DNA from: Antarcticirhabdus aurantiaca
GTDB lineage: Bacteria > Pseudomonadota > Alphaproteobacteria > Rhizobiales > Rhizobiaceae
Reading direction: 5' to 3'
NCBI RefSeq assembly: GCF_009765365.1
Contig: NZ_VTOM01000002.1
Span: forward strand, 186,001 to 250,000
DNA: 64,000 bases
Shown piece by piece: positions 29,238 through 51,446 of the stretch. Position 1 is the first letter of the stretch. Each line of letters begins with the position of its first letter. Below the pieces are notes generated by a model. That model did not search any database. It was given only the letters and a program-made list of their open reading frames with translations, and was not told the origin of the DNA. The translations under genes were made by a program, and so were the position numbers.

Positions 29238-30614
29238 GTGGCCGGCGTAAGACGGTCTAGAGTACGGCGAACGAAGGTATGGCGGGAGCATGCATGTTTC
29301 GCGCCCCGTTCACGTAAGCACCGAATCCGTTCCGCGCAAAGTCACGTCCCGTCCGACCCGAACATCGGCGATTCTCAGGAACCGGCGCCCGCGCTGCTTC
29401 CGCCCGAGTTCCTCGCGGTCGACTTCTTCTGCGGCGCGGGCGGAACCACGAGAGGCATCATCGATGCAGGCGGTTACGTCATCGCCGGCATCGATAAGGA
29501 GCAGCGCTGCAAGGATACCTACGTCCTGAACAATTCCAACGAAAGGTACGACGGGGCGGCGCCCGAATATCTGGATTACGATATATTCCCGAAGACAAAG
29601 GATCATCCCGGCGGGCAACAGGTTGAGCTGTTCGACAGATTGTCGGTTCTTATCAATCATTATCGATCGGAACTCCCTGAAACTTCCCTCATGTTCGCGA
29701 TCTGCGCACCCTGTCAGCCGTTCACGACGTTGGCACGCAAGGAGTTGAGCAAGACTCGCCAGGAAAGACGGGAGCGAGACAGCAATCTTCTGAATGAAGC
29801 CGCTCAATTTGTTGAGAGATTTGTTCCGGACATGATCCTATCGGAGAATGTCGCAGGCATAGGCGACCCAAAATATGGCGGCATCTGGAGTGATTTCCGT
29901 ATAACGCTGGAGAATCTAGGTTATACAGTCGGCACTCGGCTGGTCTGCACATCCAAGTTCGGTATTCCGCAGTATAGGAAACGCTCGATCCTTCTAGCCG
30001 TTCGTCGCGACCGCGTGAGCGAGCATGCATTCGGCAATCTCATCCGGGATAGCCTCATGGTTCCTGAAGAGGACACGGAAGCAGCGCCCGTCACCGTCGA
30101 ATCGGTTCTCCGGCGCTTCCCCAGGATCGGCGCCGGAGAAGCCGACCCGGAGGTTCCGAACCACCGCACTCGGACTTTGAGCGAACTTAACCTGAAGCGG
30201 CTCGCTGCCGCCAAGCCGGGTCAGAACAACTCTTACCTGGAAAGCACGAGCGACGGCGACCTCAGCCTGGACTGCCACAGACGCCTGGAAAGGCGGCTCA
30301 AACAGAGATGCTTCACGGACGTCTACACGAGAATGCGGCCCGATGCTCCGGCACCGACGATCACCACCCGTTGTCACAGCATCTCGAACGGGCGCTTCGG
30401 TCATTACGACACGACACAGGTCCGCGGCATATCGCTTCGCGAGGCTGCGGCGCTTCAATCGTTTCCCGATAACTACGTTTTCTATCCGACGCACATGATC
30501 GAACCCGTGGCGCGAATGATAGGCAATGCCGTGCCTCCCAAGCTTGCCCGGTTCTTCGCACGTCACCTCGTGAGATCTCTTGACAACCAAGGACACTCCG
30601 CTCCGGTTCGGTGA
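29238..30614 (+). CDS. DNA (cytosine-5-)-methyltransferase, first of two
   Basis: The protein (up to 458 residues) carries the m5C methyltransferase motifs: I (VDFFCGAGGTTRG), IV with the catalytic Cys (CAPCQPFTTL), VI (ILSENVAGI), VIII (GIPQYRKRSILLAV) and X (GNAVPPKLARFF). The target recognition region between VIII and IX is about 120 residues. The start is uncertain: a GTG at 29238 follows GAGGAGGAG by some 20 bases, and the first 50 residues have no homology, so a later start is possible. It heads the plus-strand operon with the GHKL ATPase, DUF4420 and Z1 genes and would protect host DNA. Confidence 0.88.
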   Translation: MAGVRRSRVRRTKVWREHACFAPRSRKHRIRSAQSHVPSDPNIGDSQEPAPALLPPEFLAVDFFCGAGGTTRGIIDAGGYVIAGIDKEQRCKDTYVLNNSNERYDGAAPEYLDYDIFPKTKDHPGGQQVELFDRLSVLINHYRSELPETSLMFAICAPCQPFTTLARKELSKTRQERRERDSNLLNEAAQFVERFVPDMILSENVAGIGDPKYGGIWSDFRITLENLGYTVGTRLVCTSKFGIPQYRKRSILLAVRRDRVSEHAFGNLIRDSLMVPEEDTEAAPVTVESVLRRFPRIGAGEADPEVPNHRTRTLSELNLKRLAAAKPGQNNSYLESTSDGDLSLDCHRRLERRLKQRCFTDVYTRMRPDAPAPTITTRCHSISNGRFGHYDTTQVRGISLREAAALQSFPDNYVFYPTHMIEPVARMIGNAVPPKLARFFARHLVRSLDNQGHSAPVR

Positions 30615-30662
30615 ACGGGCGGCAGGACGGATGCGGATGCCGATGGTCGCAGAGGGAAAGGA

Positions 30663-32156
30663 TTGTTGAAGGCCGCACTCCGATCGGCGGGATCGTTCGT
30701 CCTTCCGCCTGACGATGCGGGTAGCGTAAGAGCATTTTCGCGCATCGGATACGATCTCGCCGAAGCCTTGGCCGACTTGATCGACAACTCGATCGACGCG
30801 GCAGCCCGTCGGGTGGAAATCACGTTCACACGCAACGACAGCAGGGTGACCGCGGTCACGATCGCCGACAACGGTCGCGGCCTGACCGAGGGTGAGCTGC
30901 AGGAGGCGATGCGGTTTGCGGGTCCGAAACACCGCGCCCCTTCGACCCTTGGGATGTTCGGGCTCGGCATGAAGTCGGCGTCTCTGAGCCAGTGCCGCAG
31001 CGTCAGCGTCCTTGCAAAATCTGCGACAGGCTCACCGGTCGGTTGCCGATGGACGGAAACATCGATCAGGGAAGGTTGGCGCTGCGAGACTCTCGAGAGT
31101 GCCGACGTCCGGGAGCGCTTCGCCGCCAGCTACGCCTCTCCGCAGAAGCCTGATGCGGGTCTGGTGGTCCTCTGGGAACAGCTAGACCGCCTGACGACAA
31201 CCGGCGGTGAAGGGGGATTGGACAGCTTCCTGCAGCAGATGCTGGTCAGCCTTGATCGCAGCCTGGGATTGACATTCCACCGTTTCATCGGTCCCGCATT
31301 TGGCATAGTGCTGAGGGTGAAGCACGAGGAAAGGCCTACCAGTCTGCCGCGTCGCGTTCGAGCCTACGACCCCTTCGGCTATGCTGCATCGGGACGCTCG
31401 GGCTATCCCAGGACCTTTGAGACATACATGCCGGGAGGACCCGCGCTTAGGCTTCACGCACACATCTGGCCGTCCGGGTCCGAATCGCCGGAATTCCTGC
31501 TCGGTAAGCGCCGCGCCCTATCGAACCAAGGCTTCTTCTTCTACCGGAATGATCGTCTTGTCCAGGCAGGTGGATGGCAAAGCGTGACCAACGATGCCGT
31601 TGATCCTGAACTGACCCTCGCCCGAGTCGCTATCGACATCCCGCCGGAGTACATTGACATCAATGTACAAAAGTCTCGGATCCAGACGACTGCGGCACTG
31701 TCTTCGGCTCTTGCCGATGCCAAGTCGGGCCAGCTTATGTTCGGAGACTATCTGGACGACGCCCGTCGAGCCTTCCGCCAGGCGCGAAGTAAATCTGCAG
31801 GTCCCGCTCCCCTCCCGCTCGTGCTCGGCGACGGCCTGCCGGTGTCCGTGCAACGTCAGTCTCGTCTGTATGCAGGCGGATCGATGTTCCGCCGCATCGA
31901 TTTCGTCTGGCACACGTTGCCGCCGGATCGCGTCTTCGCCCTGGATCAAGCATCCGATCGCATCGTATTGAACGATGTCCATAGAGCCCGGCTATCGCCG
32001 GGCTCGGAGGAACCGTCCATCGACTTGCCGATCTTCAAGACCCTGCTTTTCTTCCTTCTGAAAGAGGAACTTGACGGATCGCGGCTGTCTCAGCGTCGAA
32101 GAAGACGTTTGGATGAAATCAACAATCTTCTTTTGAGGGCGCTGGAGAATTCGTGA
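30663..32156 (+). CDS. MORC/MutL-like GHKL ATPase of a restriction-type system
   Basis: The 497-residue protein has the GHKL (Bergerat) ATP-binding fold at its N-terminus: N-box (EALADLIDNSIDAAARRVE, about residues 35-53), G1 (IADNGRGLTEGEL, about 67-79) and G2 (GMFGLGMKSASLSQC, about 100-114). A transducer-like domain follows (GFFFYRNDRLVQAGGW, RVAIDIPPEYIDINVQKSRI), as in MutL, Hsp90 and MORC proteins. It starts at TTG 30663 with AAAGG just upstream and ends in a 4-base overlap with the DUF4420 gene. In known Mza/MORC systems this protein is an ATP-driven clamp. No kinase H-box is seen. Confidence 0.85.
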   Translation: MLKAALRSAGSFVLPPDDAGSVRAFSRIGYDLAEALADLIDNSIDAAARRVEITFTRNDSRVTAVTIADNGRGLTEGELQEAMRFAGPKHRAPSTLGMFGLGMKSASLSQCRSVSVLAKSATGSPVGCRWTETSIREGWRCETLESADVRERFAASYASPQKPDAGLVVLWEQLDRLTTTGGEGGLDSFLQQMLVSLDRSLGLTFHRFIGPAFGIVLRVKHEERPTSLPRRVRAYDPFGYAASGRSGYPRTFETYMPGGPALRLHAHIWPSGSESPEFLLGKRRALSNQGFFFYRNDRLVQAGGWQSVTNDAVDPELTLARVAIDIPPEYIDINVQKSRIQTTAALSSALADAKSGQLMFGDYLDDARRAFRQARSKSAGPAPLPLVLGDGLPVSVQRQSRLYAGGSMFRRIDFVWHTLPPDRVFALDQASDRIVLNDVHRARLSPGSEEPSIDLPIFKTLLFFLLKEELDGSRLSQRRRRRLDEINNLLLRALENS

Positions 32157-33157
32157 ACAAGTCGGTCGCGGAAGCCAATCCTTTGCTGCTTCCCGATTGG
32201 GAGCAGGTTCACGACCATTACATCGTCACCGGAGTTCCCGTCATCTTCGCCCTGCGTACCCGACCGCTCATCCGCGTGTTCATCGACGATGGGGGCAGCC
32301 GGCTAGGCGCGGTGTTCCAAGGGGGAAGCTGCGCCGACGTACCGATTCGGCTTGCGGCCGTGAGCATGCAGGACATCCACGCGGATGGTGCAAGAGCCCT
32401 TGAGCTATCGGTCACATCAAGAGCATTGTTCCGCACCTTTCACGCTCTGCTGGCGGACCTGACGACACGGGTCGAAGCCAGCGAAGACGTGAGCCGAACC
32501 GTCACGGACGTCCTGCAGGAGTGGCAGTCTCTCCTCAAGGTGAACTCCGCGCTGAGCGAGGATCGGCGGCAAGGCCTCTACGGCGAATTATGGCTGCTGC
32601 GACGCCTACAGCAGTCCGGCACCGCCAATGCTCTGGACGCTTGGACAGGTCCGTTCGGAGCATCGCACGACTTTCGCCTTCTTGGCTTCGATGTCGAGAT
32701 CAAGACGACGAGAGGCACGCGTCGGGTACATCACATCCACGGATTGGCCCAGTTGACTCCCATGCCGGGTGTGCCGCTCTTCCTGCTTTCCTTGCGCCTC
32801 GAAGCTGCCGGCCAAGTTGGAGAGAGCCTGCCCGAAGCGGTTGAGTCCATTGCCCGCCGGATGGTCGCCTCGGAACGAGACCGGTTCGATAGTTTGATGG
32901 CACGTTGCGGCTATCGCGAAGCCGACGCTCATCTCTACTTGGAACGATGGCGATTGGCGGAGCGGCCGCGCATTATCGCGGTGGACGAATCCTGTCCTCG
33001 GCTCACGGCCGAAGCCATCCGGAGCATGCCGCCCTCGTTCGTGCCCGAGCGGATCATCGATGTCAGCTATGAAGTCGACGTGGACGGCCTGGGAGTGGCG
33101 GACGGGACGGAGGATTTCCTCGCCATCATACCTCCAGCTGAATGGCAGGATGAATAA
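32153..33157 (+). CDS. DUF4420 PD-(D/E)XK-motif protein
   Basis: The 334-residue protein matches the PD-(D/E)XK family DUF4420. A glutamate helix (RRQGLYGELWLLRRL, about residue 142) is followed by the nuclease core: Asp in FGASHDFRLLGFD and VEIKTTRG (E and K near residue 182). It begins GTG in a 4-base overlap with the MORC-like gene and ends 3 bp before the Z1 gene, so the three are tightly coupled. It is the likely DNA-cutting subunit; activity is inferred from the intact motif. Confidence 0.85.
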   Translation: MNKSVAEANPLLLPDWEQVHDHYIVTGVPVIFALRTRPLIRVFIDDGGSRLGAVFQGGSCADVPIRLAAVSMQDIHADGARALELSVTSRALFRTFHALLADLTTRVEASEDVSRTVTDVLQEWQSLLKVNSALSEDRRQGLYGELWLLRRLQQSGTANALDAWTGPFGASHDFRLLGFDVEIKTTRGTRRVHHIHGLAQLTPMPGVPLFLLSLRLEAAGQVGESLPEAVESIARRMVASERDRFDSLMARCGYREADAHLYLERWRLAERPRIIAVDESCPRLTAEAIRSMPPSFVPERIIDVSYEVDVDGLGVADGTEDFLAIIPPAEWQDE

Positions 33158-33160
33158 CGG

Positions 33161-36028
33161 ATGTTCGAGCAACTGAACGGAGCGCTGGCTTTGATGCAAT
33201 CGGGGCCGAAGCCGCTGGGCCCCGCCTTGGCCGCAAGCGCGGCCGTGAACGATGTCGCCTCACCCTTGGATGCCCTGGGTCTCGAGGAGTTGCTCTCGTC
33301 GGCAGCGCCCGGAGATGCTTCTGTCGGGATCTTTCGTCGGGCACTGGCCATATGGGACAACGAAGGCGAGGCGATCTGGACGCGAACGACGCTTCGCAAC
33401 ACCGCCGAGCGACGTGCCCGGATCTATGAGGCACTTCTCATGGCTCCATCCCTTCGCGAGCTGTGCAACGAGCGCTTCCCATTCCACCGTCTGGATGCGC
33501 CGTCGGTCATCGCCGCCGATCATGAGCGGTGGTATGATGAGGCGCGCAGAAGAAGCTCCGACTTCTACTGGACTGCCTATCGTCGGCAGCTCGAGCGCCA
33601 GGGTTGGTCGGAGGCCGGGATCTCGGCGCTGGACGAGAGCACGACCAGCGTCATCGAGAGGCTTTCGGATCCTCGACGGACTCAGGCTTATCAGGCTAAA
33701 GGGTTGGTCGTAGGGTATGTCCAGAGCGGGAAGACAGCCAACTTCACGGGCGTAATCTCGAAGGCAGCCGATGCGGGCTACAAGCTCATCATCGTGTTGG
33801 CGGGAACGCTCGACGTACTTCGTTCACAGACGCAGCGACGCATCGACAAGGACCTGATCGGGCGCGAACTCCTGGATCGCGATTACGTACACGATGCCGA
33901 TTGGAAGCGCTTTCTCGAGCACGGAGCCAAACCTTCGAGCCTGGGCAGCTTCGACTGGCATCGGCTGACCGGCCCTGAGTCGGACTATCGAAAGCTCGGA
34001 AGGGCGGTCCATTCCCTTGCGTTTGTACGCTCGAATACTGCCAAACCGTTCTTCGATCCCGACAATCTCGTGGATAGTCCGGCGCGCATAGCGATCGTCA
34101 AGAAAAACAGCAAGATCCTCGAACGCTTGCTGTCAGATCTCCGGTTCCTCGGCCGCACGCGCACGGGCGCACCGTTGGATCAGATCCCCACCCTTATCGT
34201 CGACGACGAGTCCGACCAAGCATCGATCAATTCCAACAAGCCGGTGACCGGACCTGAAGAGCAGGAGCGCACCGCAACGAATCGCGGCATCGTGGAGCTT
34301 CTCCGACTACTGCCCCGCGCCCAATATGTCGGATATACAGCAACACCGTTCGCGAACGTCTTCGTGGATCCCAACAACGAAGAAGACATCTTCCCGCGAG
34401 ATTTCCTCGTCTCTCTTCCACGCCCGGACGGCTACATGGGCGTGGCGGACTTCTACGACCTGAACGGCAGCTCGTCGGACGAGTCGACGCGGCCCAACCG
34501 CCGCGATTACATGCGGCCGCTCGTCGGAGACGACACTGCCGCCGAGAACCTTCCGCGAGCCCTGGACAGCTATGTTCTCAGCGGAGCCCTCAAGTTGTTC
34601 CGGGAAGCCGCCCGTCCCGATCTCACCTACCGCCATCACACCATGCTGGCACATGCTTCCGCCCGGGTGGCCGAGCACGACGATCTCGCCGAAAGCATAC
34701 GAGCGGTCTTACAAGGTGCAGGTTACGAAGCGGGAAGGGGACCGGACCGTCTCGCCAAGCTTCTGGAGACGGATTTCAGGCCGGTCAGTGCCATCCGCAG
34801 TCCCGATATGCCGTTTCCTGCCACGTTCGAGGAAATCGCGCCGTTCGTCGGCGAGACGCTTGCCCGTTTGGGAGAAGCACGGGAAGCCGTGCGCATCCTC
34901 AACAACGAGAACCAGGATCAGGCACCCGACTTCGACAAAAACCCGGTCTGGAAGATCCTCGTCGGCGGCACGAAGTTGTCCCGCGGCTACACCGTCGAAG
35001 GACTGACCGTCAGCTACTACCGCCGCCGGGCACAAACCGCGGACACCCTCATGCAGATGGGGCGCTGGTTCGGCTTCAGACATGGCTACAGGGACTTGGT
35101 CCGGCTGTTCATCGGCACGGACGAATGGCTGGACAGGAACGGGCGAAGACGCATCGACCTATACGAGGCGTTCGGCGCCGTGTGTCGCGACGAGGAGCTC
35201 TTTCGCGAGGAGCTGAAGCGGTACGCCTCGATGGAGGAGCCCCGCATCACTCCGATCCAGATCCCGCCGCTGGTGCCGATGCACATGCTCAAGCCTACGG
35301 CGGCCAACAAGATGTACAATGCACGGGTGACCTACCGGAACTTCGGTGGACAGCTGGCCGAGTCGACGTTCGCCCCAACCGACCCGAAGGACGTGCGCAG
35401 CAACCAGGATCTCGTTGAGGATATAATCGGCCGGACCACCGTCCGGGAAATGACGCTTGTCGGCGACGCCGCCCGGGGCTCCGGAGGATTGACGGTGAAC
35501 GCCGGGATCCTCCGGCCGAGCGACATCGTCGAGCTCATCCGCGGTTACATCTGGTTCGATCGCCGTGAACGAGGGCGCACACCGAACCCGCTCTATCAAC
35601 AGCTGGAGTTTCTTCAACAGACCGGCGATCGCAGCCCTCAGATCGAGGACTGGGTGTTCATGAGCCCGAAGTTCGATAGCCCCCGCGCGCACCTGTCGAT
35701 CGCGGGCGCGGATTTCCACGCAGTCTTCCGCAGCCGAAACGGGCCCCGATTCACGACCTACAACGATCCCGTGCATCGTAGATTCGCCGAGCATGTGACG
35801 GGCAAGATCGAGATGTCGAGGCCGAACGCCGCCCTCGACGAACTCCGCCGCCCCGGCCGAGGCGCAATGCTGTTCTATCCCATAACCGACGTGAAGACCG
35901 GCAAGGTCAAGCCCCCTTTTTCTCCCGGCCTGACCTTCCTCTTCCCGAAGAACACGATACGAACCCCTCTCACCTTCGGGGTCGTCAGACCTGATCGACC
36001 GTCGGCAGCGGTTGTGCCTGCGGAATGA
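33161..36028 (+). CDS. Z1-domain superfamily-II helicase-like ATPase
   Basis: The 955-residue protein is a Z1-type SF2 ATPase. Motif I is GYVQSGKTANFTGVI (about residue 186), motif II LIVDDESDQAS (about 347) and motif III VGYTATPFANVF (about 393). GGTKLSRGYTVEGL and QMGRWFGFRHGYRDLVRLF (about 631) are motifs V/VI. Z1 proteins occur with MORC-like ATPases and DUF4420 proteins in restriction-like defence loci. It is the last gene of the plus-strand operon; its final 44 bp overlap the end of the convergent receiver gene. Confidence 0.9.
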   Translation: MFEQLNGALALMQSGPKPLGPALAASAAVNDVASPLDALGLEELLSSAAPGDASVGIFRRALAIWDNEGEAIWTRTTLRNTAERRARIYEALLMAPSLRELCNERFPFHRLDAPSVIAADHERWYDEARRRSSDFYWTAYRRQLERQGWSEAGISALDESTTSVIERLSDPRRTQAYQAKGLVVGYVQSGKTANFTGVISKAADAGYKLIIVLAGTLDVLRSQTQRRIDKDLIGRELLDRDYVHDADWKRFLEHGAKPSSLGSFDWHRLTGPESDYRKLGRAVHSLAFVRSNTAKPFFDPDNLVDSPARIAIVKKNSKILERLLSDLRFLGRTRTGAPLDQIPTLIVDDESDQASINSNKPVTGPEEQERTATNRGIVELLRLLPRAQYVGYTATPFANVFVDPNNEEDIFPRDFLVSLPRPDGYMGVADFYDLNGSSSDESTRPNRRDYMRPLVGDDTAAENLPRALDSYVLSGALKLFREAARPDLTYRHHTMLAHASARVAEHDDLAESIRAVLQGAGYEAGRGPDRLAKLLETDFRPVSAIRSPDMPFPATFEEIAPFVGETLARLGEAREAVRILNNENQDQAPDFDKNPVWKILVGGTKLSRGYTVEGLTVSYYRRRAQTADTLMQMGRWFGFRHGYRDLVRLFIGTDEWLDRNGRRRIDLYEAFGAVCRDEELFREELKRYASMEEPRITPIQIPPLVPMHMLKPTAANKMYNARVTYRNFGGQLAESTFAPTDPKDVRSNQDLVEDIIGRTTVREMTLVGDAARGSGGLTVNAGILRPSDIVELIRGYIWFDRRERGRTPNPLYQQLEFLQQTGDRSPQIEDWVFMSPKFDSPRAHLSIAGADFHAVFRSRNGPRFTTYNDPVHRRFAEHVTGKIEMSRPNAALDELRRPGRGAMLFYPITDVKTGKVKPPFSPGLTFLFPKNTIRTPLTFGVVRPDRPSAAVVPAE

Positions 36029-40948: not shown

Positions 40949-41890
40949 TCATGACTGATATGCATCCTCATCGCGACCTCGCGGCGGCGGAAAGCCGAAT
41001 TCCACCACACCCCAATCTTCGAAGGATCCTTCGAACGGCCGAGTGGCTTCCTCGATCAAGTTTCTAATCTCTCCGAGAGGCGCCGGGTCGGCTCCGACGA
41101 ACCTGTATCCGACCGAGAGTCGCAGAAAGCCATACCAGAGAAGGTCCGTAAGAATCCGGCCCTCGTGAGCGAGGATGACTGCATCCCTCCTGCAGTCCGG
41201 CCGGCTCTCCCGTTCCATCGGCAGGGAAGCTCCGATCGTATCTGCATGCTGTATGTGGCTTGCCAGAGCATAGCCGTGCGCGAGTCCTTGCAGATCCTTC
41301 AGAAGCAGATCCCCGGATCGGGACAGCTCTCCGACGATCCCTGTGAATCCCCACCGCGTCTCGAGCTCGCCGCGGACGCTTTTCGGATATCGGCCGGTCA
41401 GTCCTGCCAGGTCGGCATCGGACAGGATCAGGTCACGTATAGGTTGCCATCTGCCGTCGAGCGGGTCGTTTACCAAGGCGAGGATCTTGGCAGCCCTGGC
41501 GTGATCCTTCAGGAGCGATACGCCGAACAGATCCTCCGAGTATTCGCGGCAGCGTAGCGTGAAGTCTTCGCACGTTTGGAGTAGATAAGCGATCTTCAAT
41601 GAGGCTTCGAGCGAGGAGCGGACAAGCACCTCCGCGTCCCAGAGCTGCCCGCAGGCACACAGGAGCACCGCGCTCTCTGACGAGCGAGCAGCGGCCGACG
41701 CCAGTCCCATGATCGTTCCGCGCTGGGCTGGATCCCATCCGACATAGGTGGAAACGGGGGTCATGTGCGGAAGGAGCTTGCGCGACGCGTCCAACGCGCG
41801 CTCCGCCCATTGCCGTTGAAGGGCGGTCAAGTCCTCACCGTACATGGACGAATCCGGGATCTGGATCGAAAGGGACGGAGCCGCAAGCAT
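40949..41890 (-). CDS. DUF5677-like protein
   Basis: The 313-residue, largely helical protein has the core segment typical of DUF5677 proteins (LCACGQLWDAEVLVRSSLEA then SLKIAYLL, about residues 80-110) and a helical C-terminal half. Such proteins are small, soluble and of unknown function and recur in accessory islands. It lies between the second methyltransferase and the double-GHKL gene on the same strand, 90 bp after the methyltransferase stop. The family assignment is from pattern memory only. Confidence 0.6.
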   Translation of the reverse strand: MLAAPSLSIQIPDSSMYGEDLTALQRQWAERALDASRKLLPHMTPVSTYVGWDPAQRGTIMGLASAAARSSESAVLLCACGQLWDAEVLVRSSLEASLKIAYLLQTCEDFTLRCREYSEDLFGVSLLKDHARAAKILALVNDPLDGRWQPIRDLILSDADLAGLTGRYPKSVRGELETRWGFTGIVGELSRSGDLLLKDLQGLAHGYALASHIQHADTIGASLPMERESRPDCRRDAVILAHEGRILTDLLWYGFLRLSVGYRFVGADPAPLGEIRNLIEEATRPFEGSFEDWGVVEFGFPPPRGRDEDAYQS

Positions 41891-41980: not shown

Positions 41981-43135
41981 TCATGCGGCTGCAGGCCTCC
42001 GATCCCGTCTCGCATCTTGAAGCAGCTCGACAAGGGGAAGGACAAGAGTCCGGGCCATCTTAACCGGGACTGCGTTGCCGATCTGCGAGCCCCCTGCGGT
42101 CAAGCCGCCCTTGAACACAAACCATTCCGGGAAGGTCTGGAACCTTGCCGCGTGCCTGAGAGTGATACCGTGGGGTTCGGTAGGATGCACGAAGCGGCCC
42201 TTCGACGGATTGATGCATGCGGTCGTCATCGTCGGTCCCGGGAGGTCGGGGTTAATCCGACCGTAGACGTCCGAATGTCCGTCGTGTTCGCCGTGGCATC
42301 TAAGTGTCCGTCCCGACTGCTTCCGCGACCCTCCGTTGATCGGCGTCTTCGCGAAGGCAGCCGTCAGTTCCTCGCCATGACGCATGTGAACGCCGTTCTC
42401 GTCCGACGCGTCCACCGGCTCGTCGAACACGACGGAAGCCGGCGGCCAAGGTCGGGTGCCCGCGATGAGGCCTCCTTCGCTGCAGGTCGGCTCCGGAGGC
42501 CACGCCACCGGATCCTGCGTCCGATCCGTTCCGAGAAGGAAGACCCGTCTTCTGTTCTGAGGAACGCCGTAGTCCCGGGCGTTTAGGGAGAAGGGCATCG
42601 GCAGATGATAGCCGCTTTCCTCGGTAAGCCTGTAGAACTCCTCCAGGAACCAGCGATGTCGCGGCCACAGCATGCCGGGAACGTTCTCCACGAGGAAGAT
42701 CCGAGGACGCAAAGCTGCGACAAACTCGAAGTATCGGAGCAGCAAGCGATTTCGCGGATCGCCCACGCCGGCATCATTGAGACGGTGGGACGAGAATCCT
42801 TGGCAAGGAGGTCCGCCAAGCAGGATGTCGCACCGTCCCTCGTCGAGTCCGGTCTCGCGCATCAGCCGAGCCGGATCGAGTTCGAGTATGTCCGTCTCGA
42901 ACAGCTTCGTGCGCGTCAAACGGTTGTCAATCAAGTTCGACCTGTACGTCGCGCACGCCCATCTGTGCATTTCGACCGCACCGACGACCTGCACACCGGC
43001 GGCCAAGGCTCCGAGAGACAGTCCGCCAGCACCTGCGAAAAGGTCGACTCCGATCAACGGCCGTCCCATTCGGCTCGCCCCGGCCCAGACTCCGCGAAGA
43101 TTCTCGATTTGCATGGTAGGGTCGGAAACAGGCAT
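41981..43135 (-). CDS. DNA (cytosine-5-)-methyltransferase, second of two
   Basis: The 384-residue protein has motif I (GVDLFAGAGGLSLGAL), motif IV with the catalytic Cys (LGGPPCQGFSSHRLND), motif VI (IFLVENVPGML), motif VIII (GVPQNRRRVFLLG) and motif X (GSQIGNAVPVKMARTL). ATG 43135 is chosen because AAGGAG lies 6 bases upstream; the frame is open further up but without homology. It is distinct from the methyltransferase at 29.2 kb in length and target domain, so probably methylates a different site. It is the first gene of the minus-strand operon. Confidence 0.9.
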   Translation of the reverse strand: MPVSDPTMQIENLRGVWAGASRMGRPLIGVDLFAGAGGLSLGALAAGVQVVGAVEMHRWACATYRSNLIDNRLTRTKLFETDILELDPARLMRETGLDEGRCDILLGGPPCQGFSSHRLNDAGVGDPRNRLLLRYFEFVAALRPRIFLVENVPGMLWPRHRWFLEEFYRLTEESGYHLPMPFSLNARDYGVPQNRRRVFLLGTDRTQDPVAWPPEPTCSEGGLIAGTRPWPPASVVFDEPVDASDENGVHMRHGEELTAAFAKTPINGGSRKQSGRTLRCHGEHDGHSDVYGRINPDLPGPTMTTACINPSKGRFVHPTEPHGITLRHAARFQTFPEWFVFKGGLTAGGSQIGNAVPVKMARTLVLPLVELLQDARRDRRPAAA

Positions 43136-44457
43136 CGTCGCTCCTTCTGCTCCGCCCTCCCTACTCCGCAGATCGGAAAGCTCCTCATCCGACGTCGCGA
43201 AAGATCCCGGCAGCCATGCACCCATGGCATACGCGATTTGTCTAAAGACCGGTTTCCGCCATATGCTTTTCCAGCGCGATTCTGGAATCCCGACAACCTG
43301 ACGGTGAGGCGGTCGGATTGACCCGACCGTCCCCGGATCATGGAGCGACGCACCGATCGCACGACCGTTCCTCGGGCACGATCCACCCAGCCGCGAGGGG
43401 TGCATGACCGACTTCGCAGTAGCAGAAGACCGCCGCGATCCGATCGACATGGGCTGCGATCGTTTTCCGAGATGTGTCGGGAATTGCCCAGCACTGCTTC
43501 GCTTCGAAGGGGAAATGCGCGACACCGCACGATCGCCGAAGCCCCTCCCCTCGTCAGAAAACGTCATCGGGCGCCCGGAGGCTCGATCCGCCATCAGAGC
43601 TGCCCGCTTCGATAAGGCGACGCAGACTGCAGGACGGGGCTCACAAGATGCGCTCGGGGTATCTTGCAGCGGCAAGGAACGCCAAGCCGAACGGCCGAAC
43701 GCAGGCGATCGTATGCCATCGGCGCAGATGGCCCCGAACCGCCGAGCGGCAGGATCGAAGTCGGGGCAGCCGAGGACGCGCCTTCTGACGCGTTCATAGG
43801 CGGGTCCTCGGCGAATCGGACGAGCTGCCGCGATCATGGAAACTCAACCGGGCTCGAGGCGTGCGCTGCTCGAGAACCGCTCGCGGTTGCGGAGATGCCG
43901 ACGACATGCGGCAGGCGATCGGTCTCCATGACGCTGGAGGAGAGGCCGGCAACTTTCAGATCCTGATGACTTGCATGCCGGCCAAGTCCCTTCGGCTCAC
44001 CACTGCCGAGCCCGTTGCCGCAGTGCGGGCGAGTGGGACGGGCATCGGCTATGAGAAGGTTGCCATCATGCGCGTTACCTCAGCGTGACAACCCGTTCGC
44101 CAGACGACTCGCTTCCTCGCAGGCATCCAGATCGCTCACCGGCCTGCTTGAGATCAGCTTGCTAGGCAGCTTACCGTGCCGATCAACGACCAAATGGAAG
44201 GCCGATCCACACCAGCGCATCCATATGACGCGAACCTCATGCAAGATGGCCGGCGGCATCCCGATTTCTCGAGCTTCGAGCCGTTCGAACGGATCTTCCC
44301 TGGCGACGGGCAGCTGTCATGACGCGGGACCCATTCGCCCTTCTTCCGGACCGGCATCGCCGGCCGGGTTGCTGGCAAAGACGGCTTGCTGCATCAGCTA
44401 GCACGTGATGCAAGCGATGACGCTTCCCCGCCTCGGGCTTCATAGTAGGATGTCGGC
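43136..44457. other. 1.3-kb divergent gap with no clear gene
   Basis: This large gap separates the divergent methyltransferase and dUTPase-fold genes. Open frames on both strands lack recognisable features. One 59-residue minus-strand frame (44080-44259) looks the most protein-like. The region probably holds both operon promoters and decayed DNA. Confidence 0.4.
44080..44259 (-). CDS. possible small protein, 59 residues
   Basis: ATG 44259 opens MPPAILHEVRVIWMRWCGSA and ends DLDACEEASRLANGLSR, with a plausible strand-helix pattern and a frame that stays open about 20 codons upstream. No family is recognised. It may be a remnant of a longer gene. Confidence 0.25.
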   Translation of the reverse strand: MPPAILHEVRVIWMRWCGSAFHLVVDRHGKLPSKLISSRPVSDLDACEEASRLANGLSR

Positions 44458-45306
44458 ATGCTGAACTCGGTGCAGATCAATGCCCGCAAGCTAGTCCTTG
44501 GTGGCGTGGACGCCTCCTTCCGTGCGATCAGCTACGATCTGCGCGTCGGAAAGGTGGTTAGGCCAGGCGGCCAGCTGGCCGATCACTACGTCATTCCGCC
44601 GCAGGGCATCGTCGAGATCGTCTCCGAAGAACGACTGGCGCTGCCGATGGATGTCGCGGGCATCGCCATGGTGAAGACTAGCCTCAGCAACCAAGGTCTT
44701 CTCGCTCTCAACATCGGAATCGTTGATCCAGGCTATAAAGGGAAGATCGGAAGCTTCTTCGTAAACTTCGGGAGGCGGGAGCAGACCCTTCGGAAAGGTG
44801 ACGTATTCCTGCGAGTAGTGTTCCATGCGGTAGCTCAAGACGCCGAGCTTGAAGAGCCGAGGCCGGTTGATGACGACAGGTATCTCGCCGACAAGCGGAT
44901 CAATATGGAGGCAAATTTCGGCACTGAATTCCTCAACATCGCAGATATCACGGAACGGTTCGCCAAAGAACAGTTTGAGAAGTATCGGACGAAGATACTA
45001 GGCCTCGTCGCGTCAGCGGCCTTCATCCTCGCCGCCCTGACTTTCATGCTGAATTTCGGCAACCTCCTGCTCGTCCAGCGCTTCCTCCAGCCCAACGACG
45101 CGACCAGGGCGGAGCTGCTGCGGCAAGCTCTCGATAGGAGCAACGGGGATCTGGCCGAGGAAAATCGTGCGCTGCTGGAACGGGTCCAGCAGCTCGATCG
45201 AAATCTCAGCTCCGCTATCGACCGGCTGGAGGGCACTGGTGGACGCATCGATCAGAGCGAGGGAGGCCCGTTGGCTCGGCCACCGCAGGGGCAGGCAAGG
45301 CCTTGA
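44458..45306 (+). CDS. membrane-anchored dUTPase/dCTP-deaminase-fold protein
   Basis: The 282-residue protein has a trimeric dUTPase-like domain (residues 1-130) with the motif KTSLSNQGLL (73-82), which replaces the usual SSLAR, and motif III GIVDPGYKGKI (87-97). Aligned with E. coli Dcd, the catalytic deaminase glutamate (VLEFYN) falls at Phe100 (GSFFVN), so normal dCTP deamination is not expected. The dUTPase aspartate D90 is kept. A transmembrane helix follows (180-206) and then a coiled coil (215-258). It reads into the next gene with a TTGA overlap. I infer nucleotide binding, perhaps sensing, at the inner membrane. Confidence 0.75.
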   Translation: MLNSVQINARKLVLGGVDASFRAISYDLRVGKVVRPGGQLADHYVIPPQGIVEIVSEERLALPMDVAGIAMVKTSLSNQGLLALNIGIVDPGYKGKIGSFFVNFGRREQTLRKGDVFLRVVFHAVAQDAELEEPRPVDDDRYLADKRINMEANFGTEFLNIADITERFAKEQFEKYRTKILGLVASAAFILAALTFMLNFGNLLLVQRFLQPNDATRAELLRQALDRSNGDLAEENRALLERVQQLDRNLSSAIDRLEGTGGRIDQSEGGPLARPPQGQARP

Positions 45307-46271
45307 CCGCGTCGGCTGCCCTGCCCTCTTTTCATTCCATGGACGCGGTCCAGCGCTGGGCCATGGAGCGGATCATGAGTCAGGGAAGGCTCTCTTCGCC
45401 TCGAGGGCGGGAGACTCTGGAGCTACTCGCCGCAGGTTTCACGCTGGCAGATCCGCGCCGTCGCTGCATCACCAATCGCGAGCGCCGCTGGAGCCTGCCT
45501 CTGGCCATCGGCGAATTCGCCTGGCACGTCTCTGGATCGGACGAGCTCTCGTTTATCGGCTCCTACGCGCCTCGGTGGCGAGATTTTTCGGAGGATGGCC
45601 GGACCATCCGCGGAAGCTGCTACGGCCGCCGGATCTTCGGCACGCCGGATGGCACTCGGAGCCAATGGGCTCTCCTCAAGGAAATCCTCCGGGAGGATCC
45701 GATGTCGAGACGCGCCGTCCTGAACTTCCAGCAAGAGCCGCCGGAGGCGCTCCGGTCCGATTCGCTGGACACGGCCTGCGCCACCGTACTTCAATTCCTT
45801 GTGAGAGACGGAAGGGTCCACGCGATTGCTTACATGCGAAGCAACGATGTGGTCTGGGGACTGCCCTACGACGTGTTTTTATTCACGATGCTGCAGGAAA
45901 TGCTAGCGTGCGAGATCGGGCTAGACATAGGAACGTATAGTCACGTGGCTGGATCGCTTCACGTCTACGCAAGACATTTCAGCCTCATTGAACGCATCTT
46001 GGAGAGCAAGGACCCTGACGCCTTTTCGATGCCGCCGATGACGGACCTGCCTGGCCTGACGGACTTCTTGGCATGGGAGCGGGCAATCCGCACAGGACAG
46101 TCACTGGGTTCTTTGCAGGCAGCGCATGGCTTCTGGCAGGATCTCGCCAACGTCCTTTGCATTTCCTCAAACCGGGGGGAAGGCAATGCGGCGCTGAGGC
46201 CTGCTGCCATCGGCCCCTACGGGCCAGTCCTCGTGCCGTCCGCCGGACCTGCATTTGGGTCCTCGGCGTGA
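45303..46271 (+). CDS. thymidylate-synthase-fold protein, predicted dCMP-specific
   Basis: The 322-residue protein follows thymidylate synthase throughout: Glu71 (IGEFAWHVSGSDEL), the Arg pair 136-137 (SRRAVLNF), nucleophile Cys159 and Gln164 (TACATVLQF), Arg179/Ser180/Asp182 (YMRSNDVV) and His220/Tyr222 (GSLHVYARH). The residue matching TS Asn177 is Asp190 (GLPYD instead of GLPFN). That change is the hallmark of dCMP hydroxymethylase and converts TS to dCMP use. I predict a dCMP (or CMP) methylase/hydroxymethylase. The start is TTG 45303 in a 4-base overlap; ATG 45339 is an alternative. Normal cellular TS is probably elsewhere. Confidence 0.78.
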   Translation: MTASAALPSFHSMDAVQRWAMERIMSQGRLSSPRGRETLELLAAGFTLADPRRRCITNRERRWSLPLAIGEFAWHVSGSDELSFIGSYAPRWRDFSEDGRTIRGSCYGRRIFGTPDGTRSQWALLKEILREDPMSRRAVLNFQQEPPEALRSDSLDTACATVLQFLVRDGRVHAIAYMRSNDVVWGLPYDVFLFTMLQEMLACEIGLDIGTYSHVAGSLHVYARHFSLIERILESKDPDAFSMPPMTDLPGLTDFLAWERAIRTGQSLGSLQAAHGFWQDLANVLCISSNRGEGNAALRPAAIGPYGPVLVPSAGPAFGSSA

Positions 46272-46392
46272 GATTTCCCGGATCAACGGCAGCGCGAACC
46301 TGGCAGCCAACGGCGACAGGTTTGCTCATTTCCGATCTGGCAGGCCGAGCGGCCTTCCGTGCTCAAGGCGGCTACAATTCCGGGAACGATGA

Positions 46393-46947
46393 ATGGCGAT
46401 CAGCGAAGACGAAGCTCAGACGCTCATGGATGCCATCCTTGATGCTATTGCAAAGCAATCTACTCAGCCCGGTAGCAGCACAGCCGACGAGATGATCGGC
46501 CAGTGGCGAGCCGAGGTGGAGGCGGGGCGGCCGATTGATCGAAAATTGAAGGTGCGGGGCAGCCCCGGCCTTGATGAGCTAGCTGGGGTTCCTCGCTCCC
46601 GGACGACTTCGACCGGAGAGTTTGTAGGAAAGCAGGCGTATCTGAAGGTCGAACAACTGGATATGTTACTCGAAGCACTTGGACTGGCATTCATTGTACC
46701 GCACATGATGGCCTTTCGGCTCGTCGAGACGATCGAACGCTATCGCGAGCCAGATGACGACGCACCGCCTCCGTGGGTCGCGCTCGCAAAGACCGGAGAG
46801 GTTGGCGATCCGTCTCTTTTTTTCGACCGCAGGGTCGCAGAGCAGGCCGCCGCTGCAACGGCACCGCTCGCTCGGCTCATCGACGAGCTGTCCCGGAAGA
46901 CCGGACTGCGCGAACGCCTTCTCGCCCTGGTCGCGGATCCGATCTGA
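46393..46947 (+). CDS. hypothetical protein of the nucleotide-enzyme cluster
   Basis: This 184-residue soluble protein has a mostly helical composition, with no signal peptide or membrane segment. Its visible features are a helical N-terminus (EDEAQTLMDAILDAIAKQS) and a hydrophobic core stretch (LDMLLEALGLAFIVPHMMAF, about residues 90-109). It ends in TGATG overlap with the nuclease-like gene, so the two are translated together. I do not recognise the family; a partner or immunity/adaptor role for the nuclease is only a guess. Confidence 0.65.
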   Translation: MAISEDEAQTLMDAILDAIAKQSTQPGSSTADEMIGQWRAEVEAGRPIDRKLKVRGSPGLDELAGVPRSRTTSTGEFVGKQAYLKVEQLDMLLEALGLAFIVPHMMAFRLVETIERYREPDDDAPPPWVALAKTGEVGDPSLFFDRRVAEQAAAATAPLARLIDELSRKTGLRERLLALVADPI

Positions 46948-47615
46948 TGCCGCTGCGGGCCGACATGTGGGACGACATAGCCGCGGCCATCGCAGGCACG
47001 GCGGGATCCAATCTCTCGGCCACCTCCAATGGAGCCGATCTGTACGAATGCTACGTCTGGACGCTTGTGCTCGAGGCGGCCCGCCGCGAAGGCGCGGCGA
47101 TCAGGCTGCTAGATCGCAGCGGCGCACCTGCCGCCAATGTCTGGTTCCGCACTTCTCCGTCGTCGATCTTCTCGACCGCCCACGATTACTGTTACGCCGA
47201 GATACAGTTCCCGGCCCGGGAGACACTGGAGGCGCACATCGGCATCTACGTATCCGGGAAGTCCAAAGTAAACCATGAATGCGACATCGCGGTCTTATCC
47301 AAGGATGAAGCCGACACCTGTCGCAGGGAGAGCGTACACCCGCGATCCAGCAAGGTCCTGCTCGCGATCGAATGCAAGTACTATCTGAGCAGCAGCCTGG
47401 GTGTAAATCTCGGACGATCGTTCCTCGGGCTGATCAACGACATCTACATCAACGGAAGATTCTTCGTTTCCACTCAGAATACCGGTTCTGTCGATCGGCT
47501 CTTCTCTAGACACAACAAAGAATACGAAGTCGGCATGTCACCGATGGCACCTGATTTGGAGGTTCGGCTGAGAGGATCTTTCGAGAAGCACTTCCGCAAT
47601 TTCAAGGCCGCCTGA
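46947..47615 (+). CDS. PD-(D/E)XK nuclease-like protein
   Basis: The 222-residue protein shows a restriction-endonuclease-like core: an upstream Glu helix (DLYECYVWTLVLEAARR, E33), then Asp113 (VNHECDIAVLSKDEA) and Glu142-X-Lys144 (KVLLAIECKYYL). The spacing of about 29 residues between D and ExK is within the family range. ATG 46947 overlaps the previous stop. It is the last gene of the 44.5-47.6 kb cluster. Nuclease activity is inferred from the motif only. Confidence 0.7.
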   Translation: MPLRADMWDDIAAAIAGTAGSNLSATSNGADLYECYVWTLVLEAARREGAAIRLLDRSGAPAANVWFRTSPSSIFSTAHDYCYAEIQFPARETLEAHIGIYVSGKSKVNHECDIAVLSKDEADTCRRESVHPRSSKVLLAIECKYYLSSSLGVNLGRSFLGLINDIYINGRFFVSTQNTGSVDRLFSRHNKEYEVGMSPMAPDLEVRLRGSFEKHFRNFKAA

Positions 47616-49649: not shown

Positions 49650-51266
49650 TCAGCTGCCTATCCTCGCCTTGTGCCGTCCTCTGCTGGAAGCGCGCCAACC
49701 ACGAGAAGCCACATCTGCCTTCTTCATCTCGTAACAAGGCATTCGCACGATTTCGGCAAACATGGTCGCTACGTCGAACTCGCCATAGTTCCCGCCTTCG
49801 GTGCGCGGCACGTGGCCCTGAATGGCATCGAGGACGTCGGGCGCAATCCGTGTCCGCCTGCCGACTGTCTTGAACCGATGCCGCCAGCCGTGGAACGGAT
49901 CGACCCGTGGGTCATCAAGCCCGACTGAGCGAGCCCATCGCGTCAACCGCTCTCCGAGCTTTTTGAAAGGCGGCGTCGCCCGCTCCGCACCTCCCTTGGG
50001 TAGAGGCTCGTAAAACAGCGGGCCAGCCTTTGCTCTGTGAACGAAGTCGAGGAATCCCTGCTCCTTCAGGTGCGGATGCAGCGGCACCAAGCGGAAGCGG
50101 CCGGTCTTCACGGTGCCGGCTTCCGGAGTGATGCGCAGCACCGGGATATTTCCCTCGAAGGTGATGTCCTCCTTCCGGATCTGCGTGAGCTCGTTGAGAC
50201 GCGCTCCCGTGTAAGCGCACAGCCAGGGCACCCAACGTCGGGCCGCGGCATGCCTCGGCCCTAGCTTCGCCGAGGGCGTCTCGAGCGAGGCGGCCAGGGC
50301 GATGGCGGCCTCCTTGTCGTCGAGGCTGCGGCTGCGCTCCACCACCGACTTGGCGACCTTGATCCTGAAACCGGACGCGACGTTGGTCGCGAGCCGTCGC
50401 TCGCCGACCAGCCAGCCCAGCAGCGCCTTCAGGCCCGCGAGATGCACGTCGCGGATCGTCCTGTCCGATCGGCCGCCCTTGCGCAACGTCGAGATCCATC
50501 CGGACACGTCATCGCTCGTCATCCGCGAGAGGTCGTCGTGGCCGACCTGCGCCTCCAGCGTCTTCAAGGCCAGGCCCCACCGCTTCTGCGTCGACTTCGC
50601 CAGCTTCGCCGCCCTGGAGTAGGCCTCGAACTCCTCGGCGATCCGTAGGGACTTCATGGACGCCGCCCGGCTGACCAGACCGTTCGGAAAAGCTTCGGCC
50701 AAGAGCGGGAAGCGCGAGGCGGCGGGGTCGGGAGAATAGTCGCCGAGCACCATCATCTTGACCCCCGTGTCCGTCGCGTCGGCAACGGCGCGAGCGACGG
50801 CAAGGTCGAAGGGCCCCTGGAAGCTCGGATCGAGACGGATGCCGCGGGCTTCGCAGAAGCCATCGATCTTCGATCCGTAGGCATCCCGGAAGGCTCGATG
50901 AGCTTGCGCGTCGTTGGACGACTCGATGAAGTTGCGAGACAGGAGCCCGATGATGCCGTCGAAGAAGAACGAGGCGCGCCCTTCCTCGTGGTCGCGGACG
51001 ATGGCCCGGTAGAACTCGCCGGCGAGGGCGTGCATCTCCTTGGCAGTCGGCCGGAAGTACCCCGCCCTGAGATTGCGCCACCGCGCCTCGATCTCGGCGA
51101 GCGCCTCGGCGTGAAGCCTGCGCGCCTCGGCGACGTCCTTCGTGCCGAGCGAGCGCTTGATCGTCGGACGCCCGACCAGCGCGATCAGATCGGCTGGCAC
51201 GCGCTTGCGCAGGTAGTAGACCCCTGTCTTGGGGTGCTTCTCGGGCCGGGCCATTCGCAGGACCAT
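49650..51266 (-). CDS. tyrosine integrase of the genomic island
   Basis: The 538-residue recombinase has an N-terminal DUF6538-like segment (HPKTGVYYLRKRVPADL), a core-binding domain and a C-terminal catalytic domain: Arg in AYTGARLNELTQI, His-x-x-Arg in FHGWRHRFKTV, His in IQGHVPRTEGG and Tyr in GNYGEFD. ATG 51266 is used; a GTG at 51293 lies within a tandem GGTGGTACACA repeat. It ends 63 bp short of nothing else and starts about 90 bp from the 3' end of tRNA-Ser, the usual site of integrase-driven islands. Confidence 0.9.
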   Translation of the reverse strand: MVLRMARPEKHPKTGVYYLRKRVPADLIALVGRPTIKRSLGTKDVAEARRLHAEALAEIEARWRNLRAGYFRPTAKEMHALAGEFYRAIVRDHEEGRASFFFDGIIGLLSRNFIESSNDAQAHRAFRDAYGSKIDGFCEARGIRLDPSFQGPFDLAVARAVADATDTGVKMMVLGDYSPDPAASRFPLLAEAFPNGLVSRAASMKSLRIAEEFEAYSRAAKLAKSTQKRWGLALKTLEAQVGHDDLSRMTSDDVSGWISTLRKGGRSDRTIRDVHLAGLKALLGWLVGERRLATNVASGFRIKVAKSVVERSRSLDDKEAAIALAASLETPSAKLGPRHAAARRWVPWLCAYTGARLNELTQIRKEDITFEGNIPVLRITPEAGTVKTGRFRLVPLHPHLKEQGFLDFVHRAKAGPLFYEPLPKGGAERATPPFKKLGERLTRWARSVGLDDPRVDPFHGWRHRFKTVGRRTRIAPDVLDAIQGHVPRTEGGNYGEFDVATMFAEIVRMPCYEMKKADVASRGWRASSRGRHKARIGS

Positions 51267-51356
51267 CTGTGTACCACCGTTGTGTACCACCACGGCGATT
51301 ACGAAAGCCTTGCGGCGCAGGACTTACCTGCGTCTATAAGGGTTTAGGGATCCAAA

Positions 51357-51446
51357 TGGCGGAGAGGGAGGGATTTGAACCCCCGATACGGTTGCCCGTA
51401 TGCCGCATTTCGAGTGCGGTGCATTCAACCACTCTGCCACCTCTCC
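51357..51446 (-). tRNA. tRNA-Ser (anticodon CGA)
   Basis: On the minus strand a 90-base cloverleaf runs from GGAGAGG to CCTCTCC plus G-CCA, with a long variable arm typical of serine tRNAs (ATACGGGCAACCGTAT). The anticodon stem-loop is CCGCA-CTCGAAA-TGCGG, anticodon CGA, reading UCG codons. CCA is encoded. Its 3' end faces the integrase gene, so it is the likely attachment site. Confidence 0.95.

What the first reader, a model, noticed from the sequence alone, without database searches (positions are those of the whole stretch)
44458..47615. Candidate undescribed system: membrane dUTPase-fold protein, dCMP-type TS homologue, unknown protein and PD-(D/E)XK nuclease
Four plus-strand genes form a tight cluster (two with 1-4 base overlaps) inside a tRNA-bordered island. 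Two are nucleotide-enzyme folds with changes at key residues, one is membrane anchored, and the last is a nuclease. Known nucleotide-depletion defences use active dCTP deaminase or dNTPase. Here the deaminase glutamate is missing and a dCMP-modifying enzyme is present instead. A model: the dUTPase-fold protein senses phage nucleotide pools at the membrane, the TS homologue makes or detects a modified cytosine nucleotide, and the nuclease acts as effector. The model is inference.
Basis: partly seen in the sequence, partly recalled or inferred. Interest (0 to 1): 0.87.

Follow-up and report, generated by a model that had tools for sequence, protein, structure and literature searches.

The report
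Membrane-anchored deoxycytidine-nucleotide gene pair
Two of the four genes form a rare but conserved pair, a membrane-anchored nucleotide-binding protein plus an enzyme predicted to alter the DNA building block dCMP, and it looks like a new variety of bacterial anti-virus module, while the other two genes appear to be an unrelated neighbour.

Summary
Genes A (44458-45306) and B (45303-46271) are a conserved unit. A is a dUTPase/dCTP-deaminase fold without the deaminase glutamate, then one membrane helix and a probable coiled coil. B is a thymidylate-synthase homologue with intact catalytic residues and dCMP-type substrate residues.

I found 11 non-duplicate core-A loci. Each has a nucleotide-type enzyme gene directly beside A: a B-type synthase (5), a zinc dCMP-deaminase-type gene (4, one locus having both) or a HAD phosphatase (3). 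The five A-linked B proteins form one clade among 94 TS rows. C-D is separate: neither C nor D was found at the other A-B loci held, and D relatives occur on two plasmids without A or B.

Three core-A loci lie in P2-like or P4-like elements, five near cytosine-5 methyltransferase genes, and the window island carries an Mza-like set. A defence role is likely but untested.

Best mechanism (inferred): A binds or hydrolyses dCTP at the membrane and the partner removes dCMP, starving phage replication. It is a new variant of nucleotide-centred defence, not a new kind. D's nuclease role rests on a motif; its model failed.

The parts
44458..45306 (+). Gene A, 282 aa: dUTPase/dCTP-deaminase-fold domain, linker, one membrane helix, probable coiled coil
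44458..44829 (+). DCD/dUTPase-fold domain of A (residues 1-124; block mean pLDDT 88-95 over residues 1-120); Asp90 of motif 3 kept, deaminase Glu position is Phe100
44989..45063 (+). Membrane helix of A (residues 178-202)
   Evidence: Kyte-Doolittle 19-residue maximum 2.46; a segment passing the same threshold follows the fold domain in 17 of 18 proteins scored, the window's included
45106..45243 (+). Predicted long helix after the membrane segment, probably coiled coil (residues 217-262, low confidence)
45303..46271 (+). Gene B, 322 aa, TTG start overlapping the end of A by 4 bases: TS-fold, dCMP-type 5-hydroxymethylase homologue
46393..46947 (+). Gene C, 184 aa, no family above cut-off; not part of the conserved A-B unit
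46947..47615 (+). Gene D, 222 aa, PD-(D/E)XK-like motif (HE-D...ECKY); not part of the A-B unit
41981..43837 (-). Neighbouring cytosine-5 DNA methyltransferase, divergent from A
29238..36028 (+). Defence neighbour: m5C methyltransferase + MzaB-like HATPase + MzaD-like DUF4420 + MzaC-like Z1 protein
49650..51293 (-). Integrase-like gene at the right edge of the island (Pfam DUF6538 above cut-off, Phage_integrase below it)
51357..51446 (-). tRNA-Ser(cga), right border of the island

Best explanation
A-B is a two-gene module of a small family: a membrane-tethered dCTP-deaminase/dUTPase-fold protein without the deaminase residue (A), coupled to an enzyme predicted to consume dCMP (B). The most likely job is anti-phage defence by attack on the deoxycytidine nucleotide pool. 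A binds dCTP (or dUTP/modified dCTP) and either hydrolyses it to the monophosphate or, as a sensor, licenses the partner. The partner then takes dCMP out of reach of the kinases: hydroxymethylation by B, deamination by the zinc deaminase, dephosphorylation by the HAD enzyme in sister systems. Shown here by sequence: the conserved unit, the architecture, the partner swap, the loss of A's deaminase residue, the intact B active site, the mobile/defence settings. Inferred: the substrates, that A still hydrolyses, that the target is the phage, and how the system is switched on. C-D is a separate neighbouring cassette.
For: Under one profile (A5) core A scores 154 bits or more; next come a shortened E. 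coli copy (101), L046 (96) and L144 (85). Of 11 non-duplicate core-A loci, 11 have a nucleotide-type enzyme gene overlapping A or starting within about 70 bases: B-type TS at window, L001 (A partial, frameshifted at the contig start), L002, L003, L147; Zn deaminase at L012, L016, L135, L147; HAD at L148, L173, L174. L147 has TS and deaminase on either side of A with no R-M genes seen. The five A-linked B form one starred clade (100/99) of 94 TS rows; of 96 other TS-like ORFs none lies within 3 kb of a core A. B keeps Cys159, Arg179, Asp182, His220, Tyr222, Glu71 in 5 of 5, with Asp190 (dCMP-type) and Arg136 and Ser180, which align with MilA Lys133 and Ala176 (alignment); Arg and Ser there favour dCMP in MilA mutants (passages of PMC5175136). 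A folds nearest to dUTPases 8y1w and 9ln3, then E. coli dCTP deaminase; Asp90 is kept in 10 of 10. Three deaminase partners match the PADLOC dCTPase model at 6e-20, 6e-15 and 4e-13. L148 lies between portal and gpA of a P2-like prophage, the antiviral hotspot of PMC9122126 (passages). A TS domain was validated in phage defence by DefensePredictor (PMC13092281, section 5).
Against: No activity is known to me for any member. A lacks the C-terminal dUTPase motif 5 and its motif 2 is changed (K-T for R-S; motif letters recalled), so it may bind but not cleave. The HAD partner's substrate is unknown: L160 passes the pyrimidine 5'-nucleotidase model UMPH-1 by only 1.2 bits (24.9 against 23.7) and L173 does not hit it at E 0.01. 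Hydroxymethyl-dCMP could be recycled rather than wasted. '11 of 11' depends on where core A is cut off: the next relative, L046, sits beside a methyltransferase and an adenylosuccinate synthetase gene, and L144 beside a radical-SAM-like gene (below cut-off). Other weak A-like proteins have HMUDK_hel, thymidylate kinase or ImmA/IrrE neighbours, so the cytosine theme holds for the core group only. Many weaker matches were not read (most of L017-L044; 43 of the 47 loci). Core A is rare: 6 genomes (two of them the window's own and L002's) among the 1,475 listings.
Confidence: 0.45

Rival explanations
1. Signal model: B makes a modified cytosine nucleotide that acts as a ligand for A; binding switches the membrane-anchored A and its coiled coil to harm the membrane (abortive infection).
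For: 17 of 18 proteins scored have a membrane helix after the fold domain, and core A has no intact deaminase site. Clover shows that nucleotide signals made by a partner enzyme can regulate a nucleotide effector (abstract of PMC12265719).
Against: The partner swap (hydroxymethylase, deaminase, phosphatase) would give three different products, which fits removal of a shared substrate better than a shared signal. One membrane helix only.
Confidence: 0.2
2. Modified-cytosine sensor: A detects 5-modified dCTP made by phages that replace cytosine to escape cytosine-5 restriction, so the pair backs up m5C R-M systems.
For: 5 of 11 core-A loci lie near cytosine-5 methyltransferase genes, 4 of them with a recognised restriction enzyme gene (L002 BglII family, L003 HpaII family, L012, L173 EcoRII; the fifth is the window).
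Against: 6 of 11 loci show no such neighbour in the DNA held (two of them, L001 and L174, start at a contig end). The A-HAD stretch of L173 occurs 100% identical over 1521 bases in E. coli L221 with no EcoRII gene annotated within 7 kb. B itself would make the 'foreign' nucleotide.
Confidence: 0.14
3. Nucleotide hygiene: the pair cleans up unusual deoxycytidine nucleotides released when methylated DNA turns over, serving the host or the R-M system.
For: m5C neighbours as above; deaminase and phosphatase partners could act on 5-methyl-dCMP (inference).
Against: A TS-fold enzyme needs a free C5 and should not clean 5-methyl-dCMP (established chemistry, recalled); loci without R-M genes and prophage/satellite loci exist.
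Confidence: 0.08
4. First reader's four-gene system A-B-C-D with D as nuclease effector.
For: Same strand, adjacent, two short overlaps.
Against: No C-like or D-like ORF at the other four A-linked B loci in the DNA held; D relatives on two plasmids lack A and B in the regions read; C has no match in the plasmid collection; B-C gap of 121 bases.
Confidence: 0.06
5. Ordinary metabolic or antibiotic-type genes, such as a mildiomycin-like hydroxymethylcytosine pathway.
For: B is closest in the PDB to MilA.
Against: B has the dCMP-type Ser/Arg pair and not MilA's Ala/Lys; no biosynthetic neighbours noticed; the genome has another TS gene.
Confidence: 0.04

Closest known systems
dCTP deaminase / nucleotide-depletion defence (DcdV, AvcD) and dGTPase defence
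   Same: Works on the deoxycytidine nucleotide pool; three deaminase partners of A match the PADLOC dCTPase model; AvcD depletes dC nucleotides on infection (abstract of PMC10511110).
   Different: The window unit has no deaminase; the DCD-fold protein lacks the deaminase residue and is membrane anchored; the enzyme is a separate, swappable gene.
Nucleotide-centred systems of DefensePredictor (TS, dNMP kinase, 5hmdU kinase, dUTPase, MazG)
   Same: A TS domain is validated and a dUTPase predicted in defence (PMC13092281, section 5 and passages). The weak A-like gene run L163 holds several of these domains.
   Different: Whether any of their systems is this A-B pair could not be checked: figures and supplements were not available.
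T4 dCMP hydroxymethylase / MilA CMP hydroxymethylase
   Same: Same fold, catalytic residues and cytosine-type Asp as B.
   Different: Bacterial island gene coupled to A; dCMP-type Ser/Arg rather than MilA's Ala/Lys.
Clover (dNTPase + nucleotide-making regulator)
   Same: Two-gene nucleotide-pool defence logic (abstract and start of text of PMC12265719).
   Different: A and B match neither an HD dNTPase nor a nucleotidyltransferase in Pfam; the resemblance is of logic only.

Membership tests
dCTP deaminase (gene A) | DCD/dUTPase fold | tested here: met
   Pfam DCD 36 bits; Foldseek to 8y1w E 7.5e-12 and E. coli dCTP deaminase 2v9x E 1.9e-9
dCTP deaminase (gene A) | Catalytic deaminase glutamate (E138 in E. 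coli) | tested here: not met
   F/L/V/S/A at the aligned position in 10 of 10; equivalence to E138 placed by eye from the recalled E. coli sequence. A also stays below the NCBIfam dCTP_deam cut-off (52.7 against 92.8 bits)
dUTPase (gene A) | Motif 3 aspartate | tested here: met
   Asp90 in 10 of 10; motif recalled
dUTPase (gene A) | C-terminal glycine-rich motif 5 | tested here: not met
   by eye, absent from the sequence of A, which runs into the membrane helix; motif recalled
dUTPase (gene A) | dNTP hydrolysis | not testable with these tools
   needs an enzyme assay
Thymidylate synthase superfamily (gene B) | Catalytic Cys, phosphate-binding Arg, folate-side Asp, sugar-binding His and Tyr | tested here: met
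   invariant in 5 of 5; roles recalled
Thymidylate synthase proper (dUMP to dTMP) | Asn at the uracil-recognition position | tested here: not met
   Asp190 in 5 of 5; B is below every NCBIfam thymidylate synthase cut-off listed; the genome has another TS gene
CMP hydroxymethylase MilA | Ala176 and Lys133 (CMP preference) | tested here: not met
   Ser180 and Arg136 align there (residues from PMC5175136)
dCMP hydroxymethylase | Cytosine-type Asp with Ser/Arg sugar and phosphate pocket | tested here: met
dCMP hydroxymethylase | Activity on dCMP | not testable with these tools
   needs assay
DcdV/AvcD defence | Zinc deaminase domain in the system | tested here: not met
   none seen in the window unit; present beside A in four other loci
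PD-(D/E)XK nuclease (gene D) | D...ExK motif | tested here: met
   E111, D113, E142, K144 kept in 3 of 3
PD-(D/E)XK nuclease (gene D) | Restriction-endonuclease-like fold | tested here: inconclusive
   model pLDDT 32, no fold search made

The most novel reading that the evidence does not exclude
Core A defines a previously unnamed class of immune modules: a membrane-tethered, catalytically altered dCTP-binding protein that works with interchangeable dCMP-consuming enzymes (hydroxymethylase, deaminase, phosphatase), so that the cell converts or withholds dCTP at the membrane when a phage replicates.
Probability: 0.28. Interest if true: 0.85.

Novelty: new variant of a known kind. Interest (0 to 1): 0.62.

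Why it matters
If true, it adds a two-part, membrane-anchored design to nucleotide-depletion immunity. It would explain why a dCTP-deaminase fold without its deaminase residue turns up beside dCMP-type enzymes. The A-HAD version sits in E. coli P4-like elements and a P2-like prophage, so the idea can be tested directly in laboratory strains.

Tried and rejected
Four-gene system: rejected for C and D (see rivals). Housekeeping role of B: unlikely, the genome has another TS gene. MilA-type CMP enzyme: rejected on two residues. Of ten other MilA-like TS loci read, seven (L004, L008-L011, L168, L169) have the TS followed by a gene of about 270-330 aa and mostly an ImmA/IrrE-type protease gene, without A; L005-L007 differ. 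An R-M accessory role was weakened by loci without R-M genes and by the E. coli copy without EcoRII genes. Viral-contig scans: B alone found none; B alignment 204 relatives, 80 kept; A3 gave 3 weak hits; A5 gave 47, of which I read L173, L174 and L177 (an ordinary-looking dUTPase), and L175 is the contig of L148's prophage; D found none. The prophage A found no phage record; the window A found two partial matches to annotated dCTP deaminases. Promoter/terminator scan was at background (1 against 0.7; 3 against 2.9). The D model failed. Literature: nine searches (135 was about Mza) listed no paper that, from title and abstract, describes this pair; I opened seven papers, in parts, and the library lacks Burroughs 2015.
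Full report
Observation. The four ORFs exist at the stated coordinates. A and B overlap by 4 bases (B starts with TTG inside the end of A), C and D by 1 base, but 121 bases separate B from C, so there are two coupled pairs rather than one chain of four. The cluster lies in a stretch of lower G+C (0.59-0.64 in 2-kb bins from 26 to 50 kb, against mostly 0.67-0.74 outside and 0.63 in the first 2 kb), ending at a tRNA-Ser at 51357-51446 with an integrase-like gene beside it. One tRNA is found in the window; no direct repeat of its end of 14 or more bases was found elsewhere in the window.

Gene A. Pfam DCD and dUTPase both pass their cut-offs. A model from 7 sequences has block mean pLDDT of 88-95 over residues 1-120, and Foldseek puts it nearest to Thermococcus dUTPase 8y1w (E 7.5e-12), dUTPase P45 (9ln3, 9ln0) and then E. 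coli dCTP deaminase (2v9x, 1xs4). Motif-3 Asp90 is kept in 10 of 10 full-length core sequences; the position of the deaminase glutamate is F, L, V, S or A in 10 of 10; R119, N103, Y142 and F158 are invariant. A hydrophobic helix follows at residues 178-202; 17 of 18 proteins scored (8 core, 10 weak, the window's included) pass the same threshold after the fold domain (L146 misses with 1.52 against 1.6), and L173 and L174 have it too.

Gene B. It is a thymidylate-synthase-fold protein, best in the PDB with MilA (E 7.5e-55). In the five A-linked B proteins every catalytic residue checked is invariant. Asp190 replaces the uracil-reading Asn, and Arg136 and Ser180 stand where MilA has Lys133 and Ala176 (alignment); in MilA, changing Ala176 and Lys133 to Ser and Arg turned the preference from CMP to dCMP (passages of PMC5175136). 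B is thus predicted to be an active dCMP 5-hydroxymethylase or methylase. The genome has another TS gene.

Conserved unit. A scan of genome contigs with B gave three relatives. L002 and L003 have A directly before B. L001 begins at a contig end, where the end of an A reading frame (membrane helix and coil, with a frameshift) precedes B. A fifth, L147 in genome G1321, has A-B plus a divergent zinc deaminase, between genes that by eye look like housekeeping. These five B proteins form one clade with support 100/99 among 94 TS rows (which flags long branches elsewhere in the tree). Of 96 other TS-like ORFs in the loci then held (86 of them with at least 2 kb on each side; some from overlapping records), none lies within 3 kb of a core A, and one (L163) lies near a weak A-like protein.

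Partner swap. With one profile (A5), core A scores 154 bits or more; below it come a shortened copy in E. coli L222 (101), L046 (96), L144 (85) and then 63 or less. Core A pairs elsewhere with a divergent dCMP-deaminase-type gene: L012 (S. meliloti pSymA), L016/L045 (G203), L135/L170 (G676) and L147. Three of these four deaminases were tested and match Pfam dCMP_cyt_deam_1 and the PADLOC dCTPase model; the L012 one is 51% identical to that of L016. A third group pairs A with a convergent HAD phosphatase whose end overlaps that of A: L148/L160 in a P2-like prophage, L173 and L174 in P4-like elements. Altogether 11 of 11 non-duplicate core-A loci have such an enzyme gene overlapping A or starting within about 70 bases. 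This count depends on the cut: the next relative, L046, lies beside a SAM methyltransferase and an adenylosuccinate synthetase gene and groups loosely with the core in the tree (86/76). In the A tree the deaminase and HAD groups are each one starred clade and the deaminase group lies among the TS-linked rows, as expected if partners were exchanged, with L147 carrying both; the deeper forks are not strongly supported.

Defence setting. In L160 the A-HAD pair lies between the portal gene and gpA (Pfam), the place that Rousset et al. describe as an antiviral hotspot of P2-like phages (passages of PMC9122126). In E. coli, 5 of 5,426 genomes match the A-HAD stretch of L173 over at least 80% of its length, 3 at 99% or more and 2 at 87%; the two regions read, L221 and L222, are P4-like elements with primase and polarity suppression protein genes, but there the pair lies beyond the primase gene and not in the psu-int hotspot. 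HAD proteins are mentioned for both hotspots in that paper (passages), but I could not see whether an A-type protein is with them. The window island carries an Mza-like set (MzaB 4e-43, MzaC 7e-64, MzaD 8e-11). Five of 11 core-A loci lie near cytosine-5 methyltransferase genes, four of them with a restriction enzyme recognised by PADLOC or Pfam. The link is not fixed: the same A-HAD sequence occurs in E. coli L221 with no EcoRII gene annotated within 7 kb.

C and D. D relatives on two plasmids (L132, E 5e-17; L133, E 8e-4) have no A or B in the regions read, and among 240 genomes of the class only the window's own has D at E 1e-5 or better. C has no match above a cut-off in the families searched, none in the plasmids, and none outside the window's own records among the 223 sources held. 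D's motif HE-D...ECKY is conserved in 3 of 3, but a single-sequence model failed (pLDDT 32). I treat C-D as a separate small cassette of unknown role.

Mechanism. The partners of A are a predicted dCMP hydroxymethylase, a dCMP-deaminase-type enzyme and a HAD phosphatase, and dUTPase-fold enzymes turn dNTPs into dNMPs (established for the fold). The simplest common logic is that A takes dCTP (as hydrolase or sensor) and the partner removes dCMP irreversibly, which would starve a phage of dCTP. This is inference; the main rival is that B's product is a signal for A. Either would be a variant of nucleotide-pool defence (AvcD: abstract of PMC10511110; Clover: abstract of PMC12265719). DefensePredictor validated a TS domain in defence and predicted a dUTPase (PMC13092281, section 5 and passages); overlap with this pair cannot be excluded because its supplements were not available.

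Rarity. Core A was found in 2 of 385 genomes of the class, 2 of 297 of the order and 3 of 398 of the phylum, the window's own genome being one in each, and in 1 of 395 of the phylum of L002's genome, which is L002's genome itself: six different genomes in all. Many weaker matches of these searches, at the level of ordinary dUTPases and dCTP deaminases, were not read.

Noticed in passing
window 29238-37736: An Mza-like defence set: m5C methyltransferase, MzaB-like HATPase, MzaD-like DUF4420 protein, Z1 protein, then a receiver-like protein on the other strand (receiver read by eye; no PADLOC match).
   Followed up: partly
window 37729-41010: A 1093 aa ORF (start uncertain) with two HATPase domains, one resembling the BbrUII restriction-enzyme family near the N-terminus and one histidine-kinase type at the C-terminus.
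   Followed up: no
L163 4383-10238 (genome G965): A same-strand gene run with an M78 (IrrE-like) protease, a weak A-like dUTPase-fold membrane protein, thymidylate kinase, HMUDK_hel protein and TS, with a MazG/MazG_C gene on the opposite strand: a possible larger nucleotide-centred system.
   Followed up: partly
L137, L139, L141, L149: Weak A-like membrane proteins preceded by a ~190 aa gene without a Pfam match (tested for L137 and L149); HMUDK_hel genes are next door in L139 and L149.
   Followed up: partly
L047, L048 (plasmids): Weak A-like membrane proteins near genes annotated as ImmA/IrrE protease, helix-turn-helix, C1 peptidase and uracil-DNA glycosylase.
   Followed up: no
L004, L008-L011, L168, L169: MilA-like TS genes followed by a ~270-330 aa gene and mostly an ImmA/IrrE-type protease gene: a second recurrent TS cassette, different from A-B.
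   Followed up: partly
L173 3144-8401: EcoRII methyltransferase and restriction enzyme genes beside the A-HAD pair in a viral contig.
   Followed up: yes
L222 7001-8516 (E. coli strain E1): The A gene beside HAD looks shortened compared with L221 (annotated 7425-7853; profile match 101 against 154 bits).
   Followed up: no
L005, L006 (Geobacillus and Streptococcus salivarius plasmids): TS relatives inside long same-strand gene runs annotated with PqqD-family, QueA-type and AAA ATPase genes; they look like biosynthetic clusters.
   Followed up: no
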